Positions 31,926 through 39,657 of a DNA stretch of 62,108 nt are shown one piece after another (the stretch's first letter is position 1; the number at the start of each line of letters is the position of its first letter). The stretch lies in contig SCSZ01000009.1 of assembly GCA_004322265.1 (NCBI GenBank), positions 1-62,108 of the forward strand. Direction: 5' to 3'. Under the pieces are notes generated by a model that saw only the letters and a program-made list of their open reading frames with translations, was not told the DNA's origin and ran no database searches. The stretch is from Patescibacteria group bacterium. GTDB taxonomy: Bacteria > Patescibacteriota > Saccharimonadia > Saccharimonadales > Saccharimonadaceae. Both the position numbers and the translations under genes were made by a program.

Positions 31926-33611
31926 ATGAGAAGAATCCCTCGTGGTTTTACTATCGTCGAGCTTTTGGTGGTTGTTGCAGTTATTGGTATACTAGCTACC
32001 ATTACTCTGATTGGTTTTAACAGATACCAAGCCGACTCCAGGGATAGCCAGCGAAGCTCGGAAGCTACAGTTATCGCTGAAGCACTTGAAAAATACTACG
32101 ATAAAAACGGCGAATATCCTAGCTGTAATACTATGAAAGACATTGGAACTAACGTTGCAGCAACTTTAGGTAACATCGATCCGAAAGTATTATTAACGCC
32201 TCAGGCCGCGTCGGATCAGACAAATTCGATCGACTTCTGTAGCGACATTACAACTAGTACACCTACTGATTCTTTTGCCTATGTAGGCGACGGCAGTAGT
32301 ACCTGTTCGACGGGTACAGGCTCGACCAGCTCATGTTTACAATTTAAACTGGAGTATAAGCAAGAAAGTACTGGCACAATCCAGTCGATTACGAGTCGTC
32401 GTACAGCCAACATTCTCACCTCAGGCAATATTGCAGACCTTGCTGCAACCCCCTATAGTTTCTCGCAAATCAACCTGGCCTGGACCGCGATCAGTGGTGC
32501 GGCGTCGTACAATGTTCAATATTCTCTCAACTCTAACATGAGTAGTCCGACACCGTTCACTCCAGCACCGACAACTAACGCAGCACAAGTAACAGGACTA
32601 TCTCTCGGTACGACATACTATCTTCAGGTACAGCCAGTCAGTAGCGCAGGTGTGGCAGGAAATTGGTCTAACACAGCTACCACAACGACATACACACTAG
32701 GTACTCCGGATGGTACTGCCGTTGCCGATCCAGCCGCACCATCATCACAAATAAAACTAACCTGGGCGCCAATCACAAATGCAACGAGCTACACGGTTAT
32801 TTACAATTCGACAGGTGCAGTAGACGGTAGCGGCGTACTCTCATCTCCAACAACAGTTAACAACGCAACAAGTCCTTACTACTTAACTGGACTACCCGCA
32901 GGAACAACTAGGTATTTCCAGATTAAGGCAAACGCAGCCGGATATTCGAGTGGATATTCGAGTACCGATAGCGCAATCACTCAGGTACCTACACCGACAT
33001 GTACAGCCTCAACGCTCAACTCCAATAGACAAATCACGGTGAGCTGGAACACAGTATCGGTCGCAACTAGCTACACACTGCAATACTCTACAAACTCTGG
33101 GTTTAGCGGGGCAAGTACTGTTTCAGGCATCTCAACAACAAGTCAGGCAGTTACCGGCCTTAACAATGGAACGACCTACTATTTCCAAGTTGAAGCACTT
33201 GTAGGTAGCACGACGAGTACCTATGGCGCCTGCCCATCTGCATCAACTGGAGTCGATGGACCAACTGGCTATGGCTGGAGTTCTGATGGATATGGTGTCC
33301 GTAACACAGCTAGTGGTATATGGATAAACTACCCTGGAGCTGGCAACTACTACTCTGAAGGTATGACTATCTATGGAAGCTGTGCGCCAGGTGCTACGGT
33401 TGTAACGCGCCTGTATCAGTACTACGCTTTCTCAAACAACACAGGTGCAACCCAGGCCTCACTGATGGACTGGACATGGAATAATCAAGACCGATTTACA
33501 CCGGATGGAATAAATGGTTATAAAGTTTGGTGGCAAGGCTGGGTGGCATGTCAGTCGGGTAGTAACCGTCAAGGAGATGTCTATCTCGGGAATGCGGGGC
33601 CATACACATGA
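31926..33611 (+). CDS. Type IV pilin-like protein with fibronectin type III domains
   Basis: The protein starts MRRIPRGFTIVELLVVVAVI, a standard prepilin peptidase site (cut after Gly7, Glu at +5) and pilin helix. A pilin-like region follows to about residue 165, then three fibronectin type III-like repeats (for example NLAWTAISGAASYNVQYS and TYYLQVQPVSSAG) and a C-terminal domain of about 110 residues rich in Trp, Tyr and Gly. At 561 residues it is far longer than a major pilin and is probably an adhesive minor pilin. TGCTACAAT (31911-31919) ends six bases before the ATG. The stop overlaps the next ATG. Confidence 0.85.
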   Translation: MRRIPRGFTIVELLVVVAVIGILATITLIGFNRYQADSRDSQRSSEATVIAEALEKYYDKNGEYPSCNTMKDIGTNVAATLGNIDPKVLLTPQAASDQTNSIDFCSDITTSTPTDSFAYVGDGSSTCSTGTGSTSSCLQFKLEYKQESTGTIQSITSRRTANILTSGNIADLAATPYSFSQINLAWTAISGAASYNVQYSLNSNMSSPTPFTPAPTTNAAQVTGLSLGTTYYLQVQPVSSAGVAGNWSNTATTTTYTLGTPDGTAVADPAAPSSQIKLTWAPITNATSYTVIYNSTGAVDGSGVLSSPTTVNNATSPYYLTGLPAGTTRYFQIKANAAGYSSGYSSTDSAITQVPTPTCTASTLNSNRQITVSWNTVSVATSYTLQYSTNSGFSGASTVSGISTTSQAVTGLNNGTTYYFQVEALVGSTTSTYGACPSASTGVDGPTGYGWSSDGYGVRNTASGIWINYPGAGNYYSEGMTIYGSCAPGATVVTRLYQYYAFSNNTGATQASLMDWTWNNQDRFTPDGINGYKVWWQGWVACQSGSNRQGDVYLGNAGPYT

Positions 33612-34255
33612 TCAAGAAAATACTCATTAGTGCAGGAATTATTGTTGCCATCGCCGGCGTTACACTAGCTGTGCTCTATTTTATAAAACAAGCACAACCA
33701 GCACCTGCCAAGACGTCGTCGGCAAAAACGCTCGTCCTGGATCACTCTAAGGACTATGGTGCATGCACACTCCTTGGTGCAACACTCATCAAGAGTACGC
33801 TAGGCGATACTGCGAATAAGCTTCAACCCTCAACGAACACAGGTATCACAAAAGATAAATATTTTGGAAGTGGTGTTAGTAATGTCGTTTCAGATTCGCA
33901 GGCATGTATATACGCATTTGTACCAGGTGGCAATGCAGGGAACGGATTTAATGCAACAAATGCATTTATGATCACGCGCACTGTATTTACGAATACTGGC
34001 GGCCCCGTAGCGCTTATAGCACAGATGAAACAGAACACCACTCTAACTTCGATTGACTCGCTCGGCGATGCCGCATTCTACAGTGCTGATGCGACTGCCC
34101 AGGGACCAGGTGCGACTCATACTTTTAATTTGCAGGTATTTACAGGAACAAAAGAAACAAGTTATACGATAAATCAACCAACAGCGTCCGCAACATTTAC
34201 AGCAGACACGGCAAAGACAGCATTAACGGCCCTCGCACAGACCGTAAAATCTTAA
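33608..34255 (+). CDS. Surface protein with one N-terminal membrane anchor, pilin operon
   Basis: A 215-residue protein with one hydrophobic segment (about residues 5-27), a short Ala/Pro linker and an exported domain with two Cys (in YGACTLLG and QACIYAF) that may pair. I do not recognise the domain. Its ATG overlaps the pilin gene's TGA by four bases (ATGA), so the two are co-translated and may act together at the cell surface. Confidence 0.7.
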   Translation: MIKKILISAGIIVAIAGVTLAVLYFIKQAQPAPAKTSSAKTLVLDHSKDYGACTLLGATLIKSTLGDTANKLQPSTNTGITKDKYFGSGVSNVVSDSQACIYAFVPGGNAGNGFNATNAFMITRTVFTNTGGPVALIAQMKQNTTLTSIDSLGDAAFYSADATAQGPGATHTFNLQVFTGTKETSYTINQPTASATFTADTAKTALTALAQTVKS

Positions 34256-34843: not shown

Positions 34844-37800
34844 ATGGAGTTTGAAACACGCTACAAACAACTTAATGCTGCGCAAAAGCAGGCTGTTGAC
34901 TCGATTGATGGCCCTGTGATGGTGATCGCTGGACCAGGGACAGGTAAGACGGAGCTGCTGAGTGTTCGGACCGCCAATATCCTCAGTAAAACAGATACGC
35001 TACCTGAAAATATACTCTGTTTGACTTTCACAGAAAATGGCGCAGCTGCAATGCGTAAACGCTTGGTCGGTATTATCGGCAAAGACGCGTACAAAGTCGC
35101 AATCCATACTTTTCATAGTTTTGGAACCGAAGTCATCAATCAAAATCGTGAGTTTTTTTATCGTGGAGCGTTGTTTGAGCCAGCTGATGATTTGAATCGC
35201 TACGAAATACTACGTTCAATTTTCGACGAACTAGATTATAAAAATCCACTAGCGAGTACGATGAACGGGGAGTATACCCACCAATATGATGCGACTCGCG
35301 TTATTTCTGAATTAAAAAGAAGCGGACTAACAAGTGACGAATTATTATCGGTCCTAGAGGAGAGCGAAGCAGCGATTGACGCGGCTGAGCATATTATTGT
35401 GCCACTCATTGCTGGGTCGGTTACTGCGAAAGTTCGAGATAGCCTAGCAAATATTTTGCCTGGTTTAATCAAGCTAGCAAATGCTGCAAGGACTGATTTT
35501 GAAGTCACACCGCTCGCACGAACAATTGCCGACGATTTGGCGTTTGCTATTCAACAGTCCCAGACTGAGCACCCTACAAAGCCAATTACGGCATGGAAGA
35601 AAAAATGGTTCACCAAAAATAGTAATGGCGAGTATGTCTTTAAATCGCGTGCGCACATTGTGAAACTACGAGCTCTCGCATTTGTGTACTACGAATATAT
35701 TAATCGTATGGAGCAGGCAGGTTTGTATGATTACGACGACATGATCCTCCAGGTTGTTCATGCCATGGAAGTTCATGATGATTTGCGATTCAACCTCCAA
35801 GAGAAATATCTTTATATCATGGTGGATGAGTTCCAAGACACTAACCTCGCGCAAATGCGTATTCTTCATAATTTAACTGACAACCCTTCGAGCGAAGGAC
35901 GACCAAATATTATGGTGGTTGGCGATGATGATCAGGCAATTTATAGTTTTCAAGGCGCTGATATTAGTAATATCATGCGTTTTCGCGAGTTGTATCCAGC
36001 ACTCACCAAGGTAGTACTAACTGACAATTATCGTTCAAAGGCAGGAATTATAGAAACGGCTCGAGAGGTGATTATCCAAGGTATCGATCGACTTGAAAAC
36101 ATTGATCCAGAGCTCAACAAGCAACTGACTGCCAATCAAGCTGGCACCGCAAATGTCGAACTTTTTCGTGCTCCGGCCATTGATAGCGAACGACATTGGC
36201 TAGTCGATAATGTCGCCAGTCTCATAAAAAAGGGGACAAGGCCGGCAGATATCGCAGTTCTGACTCGCCGCCATAGCGAGATACAAAGTTTGTTGCCTTA
36301 CTTTGAACACGCCAGCATAAATGTTACTTATGATCGTCAGGATAATGTACTCGATCAACCTCCGATTATTGCGCTCGAACTTCTAGCGCGGGTTGTCGTT
36401 GCTATTGGTAGCGGTGAACATGACGAAGCTAATGGTCTCATACCCAAATTACTTGCACATCCAGCATGGGGAATTGCTCCAGCAGAACTCTGGCGTCTCA
36501 GCACGTTAGCATACGATAGTAGGCAACGCTGGCTCGACATTATGGCGACACTACCGCAGTTTCAGGCAATACATAGTTGGCTGATTGGACTTGCTATGTT
36601 GTCCCGGCATACAGAACTTGAACCAATGATTGATCGTTTGATTGGTCGTACGATCGACGAAGAGCGTGAGCTCAAACAAAGTCCATTTTATGAGTATTTC
36701 TTCTCCGACAAGAAGCTAAAGGAGTCGCCGACGGCATACTTAGATTGTCTGGCGGCACTTCGCACTATTCGCTCACATCTTCGTGAATATCACGCCGAAA
36801 ACGGGCTAACGTTGCAATCGTTTATCGAGTTCATAGAGTTACATCGTCGACTAGGCACAAGCCTGCTCGTTAGTCATCCATCACTCGACGGGGATGAGTC
36901 GGCTGTTAACCTGATGACCGCGCACAAGTCCAAAGGCCTTGAATTCGAGACAGTCTATATCTTTAACAGTACCGATAACGTCTGGGGTGAAAAAGTTAGA
37001 ACTGCCAGCCGAAATATCAATTACCCTGAGAACTTACCACTTGCTCCTGCAGGAGAGTCATCGGATGAACGATTGCGTCTCTATTATGTTGCGATGACCC
37101 GTGCCAAAACTCGCCTAGTTATGAGTTACAGCGAAGGTGACGATCGTGATCGTGGCACCCTCGTCGCGAGCTTTCTGTCTGATAGCAAGATAGCTGTTTC
37201 TGAAATACCCGCACTATCGGACGGTGATCTTGTTGTATCGTCGGAGCTAGCGTGGTATCAGCCGATCATCCAACCTACTTCTGATCTTGCAGCATTACTC
37301 GAGCCAATTCTTCAGACGTATAAATTGAGCGTTACGCATCTTAATTCGTTTCTTGACGTTACGCGTGGTGGCCCACGAGCATTTCTACTTGATAACTTGT
37401 TGCATTTTCCGAGTGCTAAATCTGCCGCTGCCTCGTACGGCTCCGCGATTCATAACACGCTCCAACAAGCACATGTTCATATGGCTGCGACGAGTCAGAG
37501 AAAACCTCTTGAAGACGTGCTGCACGACTTCGAGGTGAATCTAGAATCCGAGCGACTCAGCCCGATCGACTTCAAGACATACTTACAAAAAGGTATCGAA
37601 CAATTACAAGCTTTTCTTGATGCAAAGTATAGTACCTTTAGTCCAACACAAAAGTCCGAACTTAGTTTCTCCAATCAAATGGTCATGCTAAATGATGCGT
37701 ACCTAACTGGTATGATCGACGTCGCTGACATCGACCAGAACGCAAAGACAATATCTGTTACTGATTACAAGACCGGAAAACCATCCATAAATTGGAAGGG

Positions 37801-38122
37801 TAGTGATGAATATGAAAAGATTAAGCTTCATAAATATCGCCAGCAGCTCGTCTTTTATAAATTACTTGTTGAGCATTCTCGCGATTACAGTAATTACGCG
37901 GTTGAAAGTGGTAGCCTAGAATTTGTCGAGCCAACAAAAACTGGTGAGATCGTGGCGCTACAAACAAGTTTTGATGCGGACGAAATCGATCGACTGACTC
38001 GGTTAATTAGCAAGGTATGGGAGCACATTACCACACTCAATCTGCCCGACACATCAGCATACGAACCGAATCTCAAGGGTATCTTGGCGTTCGAACAAGA
38101 CCTCATTGACGATATTATATAA
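34844..38122 (+). CDS. UvrD/Rep-family helicase with C-terminal RecB-type nuclease
   Basis: The 1092-residue protein is a superfamily 1A DNA helicase: Walker A GPGTGKTE (30-37), motif II MVDEFQDTN, DDQAIYSFQGAD, MTAHKSKGLEFETVYIF and LYYVAMTRAKTRL. The last 250 residues carry a PD-(D/E)XK nuclease of the RecB/Cas4 type, with LTGMIDVADID and VTDYKTGKPS. The combination resembles AddA/AddB and archaeal-type helicase-nucleases used in double-strand-break end processing. No AddB partner is visible here. TATAAT (34831-34836) ends seven bases before the ATG. Confidence 0.9.
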   Translation: MEFETRYKQLNAAQKQAVDSIDGPVMVIAGPGTGKTELLSVRTANILSKTDTLPENILCLTFTENGAAAMRKRLVGIIGKDAYKVAIHTFHSFGTEVINQNREFFYRGALFEPADDLNRYEILRSIFDELDYKNPLASTMNGEYTHQYDATRVISELKRSGLTSDELLSVLEESEAAIDAAEHIIVPLIAGSVTAKVRDSLANILPGLIKLANAARTDFEVTPLARTIADDLAFAIQQSQTEHPTKPITAWKKKWFTKNSNGEYVFKSRAHIVKLRALAFVYYEYINRMEQAGLYDYDDMILQVVHAMEVHDDLRFNLQEKYLYIMVDEFQDTNLAQMRILHNLTDNPSSEGRPNIMVVGDDDQAIYSFQGADISNIMRFRELYPALTKVVLTDNYRSKAGIIETAREVIIQGIDRLENIDPELNKQLTANQAGTANVELFRAPAIDSERHWLVDNVASLIKKGTRPADIAVLTRRHSEIQSLLPYFEHASINVTYDRQDNVLDQPPIIALELLARVVVAIGSGEHDEANGLIPKLLAHPAWGIAPAELWRLSTLAYDSRQRWLDIMATLPQFQAIHSWLIGLAMLSRHTELEPMIDRLIGRTIDEERELKQSPFYEYFFSDKKLKESPTAYLDCLAALRTIRSHLREYHAENGLTLQSFIEFIELHRRLGTSLLVSHPSLDGDESAVNLMTAHKSKGLEFETVYIFNSTDNVWGEKVRTASRNINYPENLPLAPAGESSDERLRLYYVAMTRAKTRLVMSYSEGDDRDRGTLVASFLSDSKIAVSEIPALSDGDLVVSSELAWYQPIIQPTSDLAALLEPILQTYKLSVTHLNSFLDVTRGGPRAFLLDNLLHFPSAKSAAASYGSAIHNTLQQAHVHMAATSQRKPLEDVLHDFEVNLESERLSPIDFKTYLQKGIEQLQAFLDAKYSTFSPTQKSELSFSNQMVMLNDAYLTGMIDVADIDQNAKTISVTDYKTGKPSINWKGSDEYEKIKLHKYRQQLVFYKLLVEHSRDYSNYAVESGSLEFVEPTKTGEIVALQTSFDADEIDRLTRLISKVWEHITTLNLPDTSAYEPNLKGILAFEQDLIDDII

Positions 38123-38215
38123 TAATGTTATTATTATCGTGCGCAGATTGAGAACAGCGTACCATGCACATCATCGTATGACGTTCATCGTACACTGGTC
38201 TCTCTGTCGTACTTT

Positions 38216-38642
38216 AACGACAGCAAAGCTTCGTCGGATTCTCCCCCGGATTCGCTCACCACCTTCCCCTAGGTGAGCGAGTTGTCCCGACGAACCTAAC
38301 GGGGGCTCCGCTGTGCTGGAAAGGTATGTCAATCGGATTTAAGATTGGCTACTGACTACGTGCGGCGGAGTCCCCTTAGATTTTTAACTTGTCGTTGTTC
38401 CCTCTGAGCGGAACGACGGCCCGCAGGAGCAAGACGCACGCCTACTCGCTGTAGGTTAAGGACCCCATAATAGGCACCTCCTTGCCTAGGGAACCCTCGT
38501 CGCTCTTCGCGGTTGAACTTTCGTCCCTTAACAGGTAGACATCGCTGGGGAGCTAGGTGTCGCGTATGAGAGTTCATAACGTCCAGCACAACTGTGCTGA
38601 TTCTGTAATACAGAGTGAACGCTACGTTTTTTTGCTGTCGTT
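38216..38642 (-). ncRNA. Unassigned structured RNA of about 430 nt
   Basis: The 585-base gap between the helicase and dus genes has no convincing reading frame but strong pairing. The outer ends form a perfect 12-bp helix (38216-38227 with 38631-38642). Inside are 38230-38237 with 38287-38294, 38252-38260 with 38272-38280, 38302-38311 with 38365-38375 (one bulge), 38454-38463 with 38523-38532 (one bulge), 38471-38476 with 38483-38488, and 38584-38589 with 38594-38599. Read on the minus strand, loops are purine-rich (GAAA, GAAGA), which favours that strand. It lacks the RNase P GAGGAAAGTCC core and a tmRNA alanine acceptor or tag frame. The family is unknown. Confidence 0.6.
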
Positions 38643-38706
38643 CATCTCTCACTAGCCGTAACAATCGTTATGACAAGTGAGAGATGTTTTATGAGATAAT
38701 AGAATA

Positions 38707-39657
38707 ATGAAAAATTTCTGGTTAGAGTTACCAAAGCCTTTTTTTGTACTAGCGCCGATGGAAGCAGTTACAGATGTTGTCTTTCGTCATGTCATCAATA
38801 CCGCAGGTAGGCCTGATATCTTCTTTACCGAATTTACGAGCACAGCTGGGTATTGTAGTCCAAAGGGCAGGCACAGTACCGCAGGGCGCCTGGCATTTAC
38901 TGATGACGAACAACCGATGGTTGCGCAGATTTGGGGTAACAATCCAGACCAGTTCCGCGAAATGGCATTTGGACTTAAGGAAATGGGCTACAGCGGTATC
39001 GATATTAATACAGGTTGTCCAGATAAATCGGTCGTGAGGCAGGGGAGTGGTAGCGGACTTATCGGTAACTATGACTTAATGAGCCAAATTATTAGCGCAA
39101 CAAAAGAAGCCGGCCTTCCGGTCAGTGTCAAAGCGCGTCTTGGTGCAACAAAGGTAGAGGAATGGCGCGATTGGCTAGGTTTTCTACTGCAACAAGACAT
39201 TGTCAATCTAACGATTCACCTGCGAACGCGTAAAGAAATGAGTAAAGTCGATGCTCATTTTGAATTGATTCCTGAAATTAAAAAATTACGTGATGAAATC
39301 GCGCCCCAAACGCTACTGACTATTAACGGTGATATTCGCGATCGCCAGCACGGCGAAGAGCTCATTGAGAAATACGGCGTCGACGGTATCATGATTGGAC
39401 GCGGCATTTTTCATAACCCATTTGCATTCGAAACCAATAAACAAGAGCATACGAAGGATGAACTGCTTAGTTTGCTAAACCTTCAGTTGGACCTGCACGA
39501 CAAATATTCGAGCGAGCTTGAACCACGCAAGTTTGATCCACTAAAACGTTTTTTCAAAATATACATTCGTAACTTTGACGGAGCAAGCGAGCTAAGAGAA
39601 AAACTAATGCATACAAAAACCACTGCCGAAGTTCGTGCAGTGTTGTTATCAATTTAG
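38707..39657 (+). CDS. tRNA-dihydrouridine synthase
   Basis: A 316-residue FMN-dependent enzyme that reduces uridines in the tRNA D-loop. It starts with the TIM-barrel FMN segment [15 protein letters not shown], has [10 protein letters not shown], the catalytic Cys in [25 protein letters not shown], and the phosphate-binding NGDIRDR and GIMIGRGIF. Which Dus subfamily it belongs to is not clear. TGAGATAAT (38692-38700) ends six bases before the ATG. Confidence 0.92.

What the first reader, a model, noticed from the sequence alone, without database searches (positions are those of the whole stretch)
38216..38642. Unassigned RNA of about 430 nt closed by a 12-bp helix
A 585-base gap contains at least seven nested or local helices, with its ends forming a perfect 12-bp stem 415 bases apart. 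The minus-strand 3' strand of that stem can alternatively pair with a nearby copy (CTGTCGT/ACGACAG, about 38202-38221), so two folds compete. I could not match it to RNase P RNA, tmRNA, SRP RNA, 6S RNA or a self-splicing intron.
Basis: partly seen in the sequence, partly recalled or inferred. Interest (0 to 1): 0.75.

Follow-up and report, generated by a model that had tools for sequence, protein, structure and literature searches.

The report
Structured RNA with swappable contents
Between two ordinary genes, one family of tiny Saccharibacteria keeps a large, self-folding RNA whose outer frame is preserved while its contents (a small protein gene, a tRNA-like piece, or only RNA hairpins as here) are swapped between close relatives; it matches no RNA family in Rfam.

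Summary
The gap 38123-38706 between uvrD (helicase fused to a PD-(D/E)XK nuclease) and dus holds a structured RNA, but on the + strand and larger than stated (about 38140-38690): promoter TTGACG-17-TATTAT, 5' hairpin, 13-pair closing helix (38216-38228/38630-38642), inner hairpins, terminator-like hairpin. Rfam gives nothing even at E<=10. A covariance model built from eight relatives without the window finds this place at E=3e-8. The closing helix covaries (10 of 13 pairs changed on both sides, 0/500 shuffles), as does an inner hairpin. Most genera sampled from one Saccharibacteria family carry such an insert at this site; some lineages lack it. The frame is conserved but contents are replaced wholesale between close relatives: ribosome-binding-site hairpin plus 40-80-aa ORF (helical or Cys-rich, purifying selection), sometimes a tRNA-like domain with abnormal anticodon loop. 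The window copy has no ORF yet folds as strongly (z about -11), and sits next to a foreign uvrD (70% to another genus, 57% to its nearest relative, whose other genes are mostly 80-97% identical). Best reading: a new structured RNA family, an mRNA/ncRNA scaffold whose end-to-end pairing shields the transcript and may gate translation. Function unproven.

The parts
34844..38122 (+). UvrD-like helicase with PD-(D/E)XK (RecB-like) nuclease domain; foreign allele that probably arrived together with the RNA
   Evidence: Pfam UvrD-helicase, UvrD_C, PDDEXK_1; 67-70% identical to genus g18, 52-59% in own genus
38106..38134 (+). sigma-70-type promoter TTGACG-17-TATTAT, -35 box inside the end of uvrD
   Evidence: same arrangement in many relatives
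38139..38212 (+). 5' hairpin with conserved UU bulge (CAGA-UU-GAG ... CUC-UCUG)
   Evidence: model R1, built without the window, hits 38140-38228 at E 3.2e-8
38204..38210 (+). segment a (CUGUCGU), competitor for the 5' strand of the closing helix
38216..38228 (+). closing helix, 5' strand (b)
   Evidence: covariation, 10 of 13 pairs changed on both sides, 0/500 shuffles
38230..38294 (+). domain D1: stem UUCGUCGG/CCGACGAA with inner hairpin
   Evidence: MFE fold only; a domain in this place in relatives, compared only by eye
38301..38375 (+). domain D2: GC-rich hairpin GGGGGCUCCGCUGUGC/GUGCGGCGGAGUCCCC
   Evidence: covaries in 9 sequences including the window: 6 of 11 pairs changed on both sides, 99% paired
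38391..38616 (+). hairpins D3-D7, in the place where relatives carry the small ORF
   Evidence: z -3.6 on + strand, -1.2 on - strand; no ORF remnant
38630..38642 (+). closing helix, 3' strand (c)
38643..38690 (+). terminator-like hairpin CAUCUCUCACU...AGUGAGAGAUG-UUUU
   Evidence: by eye; hairpin in this place, often with longer T runs, in relatives; not reached by the simple scan
38707..39657 (+). tRNA-dihydrouridine synthase gene (dus), native neighbour
   Evidence: Pfam Dus; 90% identical to G010

Best explanation
A + strand transcript of about 550 nt from its own promoter between uvrD and dus, a member of a previously undescribed, family-wide structured RNA of Saccharibacteria. A conserved frame (5' hairpin, long-range closing helix b-c, terminator-like hairpin) encloses contents that are exchanged as a block. 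In most members the contents are GC-rich hairpins, a ribosome-binding-site hairpin and a small ORF, sometimes with a tRNA-like domain, so the RNA is usually a structured mRNA. Inferred mechanism: the 5' hairpin (containing a) forms first; b is free or locally paired with a; once the 3' end is made, b pairs with c and joins the ends into a stable RNA that resists exonucleases and exposes translation signals only in one state, similar in logic to hok mRNA. The window copy is an ORF-less variant that would act, if at all, as an RNA. Shown: existence of the conserved structured element, strand bias, closing helix, D2 and 5' hairpin, block replacement, selection on relatives' ORFs, foreign uvrD beside it. 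Inferred: transcription, joint transfer with uvrD, translation control, function.
For: Independent model hit E 3.2e-8 and only that place in the window; 10 of 28 genus genomes hit, all in the uvrD-dus gap; four genera of one family in an order-wide search, all next to uvrD, after setting aside one weak chance hit. Covariation of closing helix and D2. z -6.5 to -12.9 on + strand in 9 elements. Block replacement within conserved frames: L175/L178, L176/L177, L007/L014. Relatives' ORFs under purifying selection, dN/dS about 0.18, 0.43 and 0.5 in three pairs. RBS-hairpin motif found in 7 of 295 genomes, every time at this locus. uvrD of the window closest to genus g18 while neighbours are native.
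Against: No expression data. The a-b competition is weak or absent in some members. The window copy lacks the ORF, so it cannot itself be gating translation. Several lineages have no insert, so it is dispensable. Terminator not detected by the consensus scan. The window interior D3-D7 has no close homologue for covariation. Shuffle controls do not remove relatedness of sequences.
Confidence: 0.6

Rival explanations
1. A non-coding ornate RNA in the style of GOLLD or ROOL whose folded body is the functional product; ORF and tRNA-like pieces are passengers or partners.
For: Window copy without ORF folds at least as strongly as ORF-bearing ones; G155 has only the 3' part of an ORF but keeps the closing helix; tRNA-like parts in 16 of 69 elements; GOLLD and ROOL are often near tRNA islands and have no known function (PMC12286853).
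Against: No Rfam match to GOLLD, ROOL or OLE; most members have an ORF, under purifying selection where tested; no phage association found.
Confidence: 0.25
2. A mobile DNA cassette whose 13-bp inverted repeats b and c act as terminal repeats for recombination; the RNA structure is secondary.
For: b and c nearly bound the exchanged block in L175/L178; insert absent in some lineages; foreign uvrD next to it.
Against: The conserved frame includes promoter, 5' hairpin and terminator-like hairpin outside the repeats; G-U pairs are tolerated in the helix; no transposase or integrase seen in the gap; always at one site, unlike a transposon; the RNA folds far better than chance.
Confidence: 0.1
3. 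A type I toxin-antitoxin-like locus: small toxic peptide with hok-like long-range mRNA folding.
For: Long-range 5'-3' helix with a local competitor, RBS hairpin, dispensable and exchanged.
Against: Peptides are hydrophilic helical or zinc-ribbon-like, not hydrophobic membrane peptides; no antisense promoter in the window region; window copy has no ORF.
Confidence: 0.08
4. Decaying intergenic sequence with chance structure.
For: Variable between species, absent in some; 2 of 60 shuffles match the stem length.
Against: Independent model hit, covariation, z scores, synteny.
Confidence: 0.03

Closest known systems
GOLLD and ROOL RNAs
   Same: Large, highly structured bacterial RNAs, partly variable, often near tRNAs, function unknown (PMC12286853)
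   Different: No Rfam similarity; here a single chromosomal site next to uvrD, mostly with a small ORF inside; no phage link found
hok mRNA (hok/sok type I toxin-antitoxin)
   Same: Long-range pairing of the two ends with a local 5' competitor (from my own knowledge of hok; no paper on it was found in the library)
   Different: No hydrophobic toxin, no antisense RNA recognised, window copy has no ORF
tmRNA
   Same: tRNA-like part plus short ORF in some members
   Different: ORF uses a ribosome-binding site and start codon; the tRNA-like part is contiguous; the genome has a normal tmRNA elsewhere
HEARO and other ORF-bearing structured RNAs
   Same: Structured RNA containing an ORF (own knowledge)
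   Different: ORF is 40-80 aa without a nuclease domain; no Rfam match
DnaJ-type CXXCXGXG zinc peptides (anti-TRAP-like)
   Same: Cys-rich peptides of some relatives resemble this pattern weakly (E 0.009, below cut-off)
   Different: Membership not established; absent from the window

Membership tests
GOLLD / ROOL / OLE (Rfam) | match to the family covariance model | tested here: not met
   no match at E<=10 over 38050-38760
RNase P RNA | match to the covariance model | tested here: not met
   no match here; the gene is at G000:C4:19747-20082, 253.7 bits
tmRNA | match to the covariance model | tested here: not met
   no match here; the gene is at G000:C4:16607-17008
6S RNA, SRP RNA, self-splicing introns | Rfam covariance models | tested here: not met
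hok-type long-range mRNA folding | 5' end pairs with 3' end over hundreds of nt | tested here: met
   closing helix covaries
hok-type long-range mRNA folding | metastable 5' competitor | tested here: inconclusive
   own better than swapped, p=0.006, but not universal
hok-type long-range mRNA folding | encodes a hydrophobic toxin | tested here: not met
   window has no ORF; relatives' peptides are hydrophilic by their sequence
the uvrD-dus RNA family defined here | 5' hairpin model R1, closing helix, synteny | tested here: met
the uvrD-dus RNA family defined here | small ORF with RBS hairpin (common, not universal) | tested here: not met
   absent in the window; filed as an ORF-less variant

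The most novel reading that the evidence does not exclude
A dedicated RNA cassette locus: a fixed RNA frame tied to a RecB-like helicase-nuclease gene exchanges its contents (microprotein, tRNA-like or pure RNA hairpins) between lineages, driven by conflict with phages or other cells, and the contents work with or against that nuclease.
Probability: 0.2. Interest if true: 0.9.

Novelty: categorically new. Interest (0 to 1): 0.75.

Why it matters
Large structured bacterial RNAs are few, and the known ones keep recognisable sequence. Here the helices and the frame are kept while the contents are replaced as blocks, at one site next to a helicase-nuclease gene, in reduced genomes. If the function is found it could explain how such epibionts diversify small proteins or RNAs. 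It also gives a testable long-range RNA switch and an unusual set of tRNA-like domains with 6- or 8-nt anticodon loops. The label 'categorically new' rests on the organisation, since no described family or paper was found; the function is not known.

Tried and rejected
Known RNA families: no Rfam match even at E<=10; RNase P and tmRNA found elsewhere. blastn in 40 relatives found no homologue of the body, so synteny and structure were used. Minus-strand RNA: rejected by fold asymmetry. A minus-strand ORF behind AAGGAGGTG at about 38480-38490 gives only 8 codons: rejected. ORF remnant in the window: none by profile search. Small ORF families: no Pfam hit over cut-off, no convincing PHROG. Phage origin: no relatives of the peptides that hold up, the RBS-motif hits in viral contigs are unrelated, and R1 finds nothing there. 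PADLOC hits of UvrD are generic UvrD-helicase similarity. The L142 hit of R1 is weak and not at the uvrD-dus site: taken as chance. Paper searches gave nothing on this locus.

Full report
The gap and its genes. The window is contig C23 of an 886-kb genome; the nearest named relatives are Candidatus Saccharibacteria MAGs. The gap 38123-38706 lies between a UvrD-like helicase fused to a PD-(D/E)XK nuclease (34844-38122) and a Dus-family tRNA-dihydrouridine synthase (38707-39657), both on +.

The observation. The 12-bp stem 38216-38227/38631-38642 and the competing CTGTCGT/ACGACAG copy are there. The + strand of 38190-38660 folds at -195 kcal/mol, z -7.8; the - strand has z -2.05. The whole gap gives z -10.9 on + and -5.7 on -. 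The stem alone is not strong evidence: 2 of 60 dinucleotide shuffles contain a 12-bp long-range stem. A sigma-70-like promoter TTGACG-17-TATTAT (38106-38134) precedes it on +, and a hairpin followed by TTTT (38643-38690) follows it; the latter was seen by eye and not by the consensus scan.

It is not a known family. Rfam 15 gives nothing at gathering thresholds or at E<=10. RNase P RNA and tmRNA are on another contig.

Relatives. blastn finds no homologue of the body in 40 relatives, but uvrD and dus are adjacent in most of the genus, and the gap is either 2-46 nt or about 425-1,050 nt. The long gaps share a plan: promoter, 5' hairpin CAGA-UU-GAG...CUC-UCUG, a strand b (usually GACAGAGAUAGUG), variable contents, a strand c (usually CACUAUCUCUGUC), terminator-like hairpin. 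A covariance model of the 5' part, built from eight relatives without the window, finds window 38140-38228 + at E 3.2e-8 and nowhere else in the window. In the genus it hits 10 of 28 genomes, always in this gap (the weak - strand hits are shadows of the same hairpin). In 393 genomes of the order it hits members of one family only; nine of the ten new loci read lie next to uvrD, and the one weak hit that does not is taken as chance, leaving four genera. In a wider family sample 70 gap sequences were read, a few of the same genome twice: apart from one gap of 65 nt the lengths are 248-1,424 nt.

Covariation. For the closing helix, 18 distinct sequences: 88% of cells paired, 10 of 13 pairs with changes on both sides, 27 such cells, 0 of 500 shuffles as high, and all slid controls far lower (a first set of 15 agrees). 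The window has its own version, AACGACAGCAAAG/UUUUGCUGUCGUU. For hairpin D2, nine sequences including the window: 99% paired, 6 of 11 pairs changed on both sides; none of 500 shuffles reached its covariation score. The segments for these two alignments were picked by hand, and relatedness is not removed by the shuffles. D1 and D3-D7 of the window rest on energy only.

Two folds. Segment a of the 5' hairpin complements b better in its own RNA than in swapped ones (15.2 against 14.0, p=0.006 in 28 sequences, relatedness not controlled), and the window's own pair ranks first, but several members have only 4-5 pairs. I regard the competition as likely in the window and not universal.

The contents. 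Most relatives carry an ORF of 40-80 codons behind a ribosome-binding-site hairpin (CACC-CUUAGGA-GGUGA), sometimes with what look like AUU, AUC or ACG start codons. Two kinds recur: hydrophilic helical peptides (MAGNQ... and MAT..QY...) and Cys-rich peptides with weak zinc-ribbon or DnaJ similarity below cut-off. Three pairs of relatives in which dN/dS could be computed gave about 0.18, 0.43 and 0.5, so the ORFs are probably translated. The RBS-hairpin motif occurs in 7 of 295 family genomes, each time in this gap. 16 of 69 elements contain tRNA-like sequences, 21 in all; eight have two- or four-base anticodons, meaning 6- or 8-nt loops, and others have A34 anticodons odd for their codon boxes.

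Block exchange. L175 and L178 largely agree up to b and from just before c, and differ throughout between. L176 and L177 agree through the hairpins and after c but carry unrelated ORFs, Cys-rich against a truncated helical one. L007 and L014 share little more than promoter, 5' hairpin and terminator.

The window copy. It has no ORF by inspection or by profiles of both ORF kinds. Its D3-D7 region still folds better on + (z -3.6) than on - (z -1.2), so it does not look like plain decay. The nearest genome, G010, is 80-97% identical in most neighbouring genes, but its UvrD is 57% identical and it has no insert. The window's UvrD is 67-70% identical to four genomes of another genus, and all four carry the RNA element. 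uvrD and RNA were therefore probably acquired together while dus stayed native; since the RNA body has no close match there, joint transfer is inferred, not shown.

Interpretation. A conserved frame plus exchanged contents, with ORFs under selection in most members, makes a structured mRNA the best general reading. End-to-end pairing would stabilise the RNA and could gate translation, as in hok. The ORF-less window copy would then be an RNA-only variant. A GOLLD/ROOL-like RNA-only function, where ORFs are extras, is the main rival (PMC12286853). No expression data exist here, and the function remains unknown.

Noticed in passing
34844-38122: The uvrD allele is foreign to this lineage: 67-70% identical to genus g18, 57% to the nearest relative G010, whose neighbouring genes are mostly 80-97% identical.
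   Followed up: partly
31926-34255: Two genes upstream (a fibronectin type III protein with an N-methylation motif, and a 215-aa protein) are also divergent from G010 (65% and 35%) while the next gene is 89.5%.
   Followed up: no
L044, L186, L194, L205, L221, L230, L231, L163 (uvrD-downstream gaps of relatives): tRNA-like sequences with 6- or 8-nt anticodon loops, so they are unlikely to be ordinary decoding tRNAs; others have A34 anticodons such as Asn-ATT and Ser-ACT.
   Followed up: partly
L163 (G001, downstream of uvrD): The insert consists of a promoter, a hairpin and an array of three tRNA-like genes instead of an ORF.
   Followed up: no
L175, L178, L182: Small ORFs behind the RBS hairpin seem to begin with AUC, ACG and AUU.
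   Followed up: partly
window 38475-38490: A predicted hairpin loop displays CACCUCCUU, which resembles the 3' end of 16S rRNA (anti-Shine-Dalgarno).
   Followed up: no
38707-39657: Dus is 63-72% identical to those of many Bacillaceae and relatives, suggesting an old transfer between the groups.
   Followed up: no
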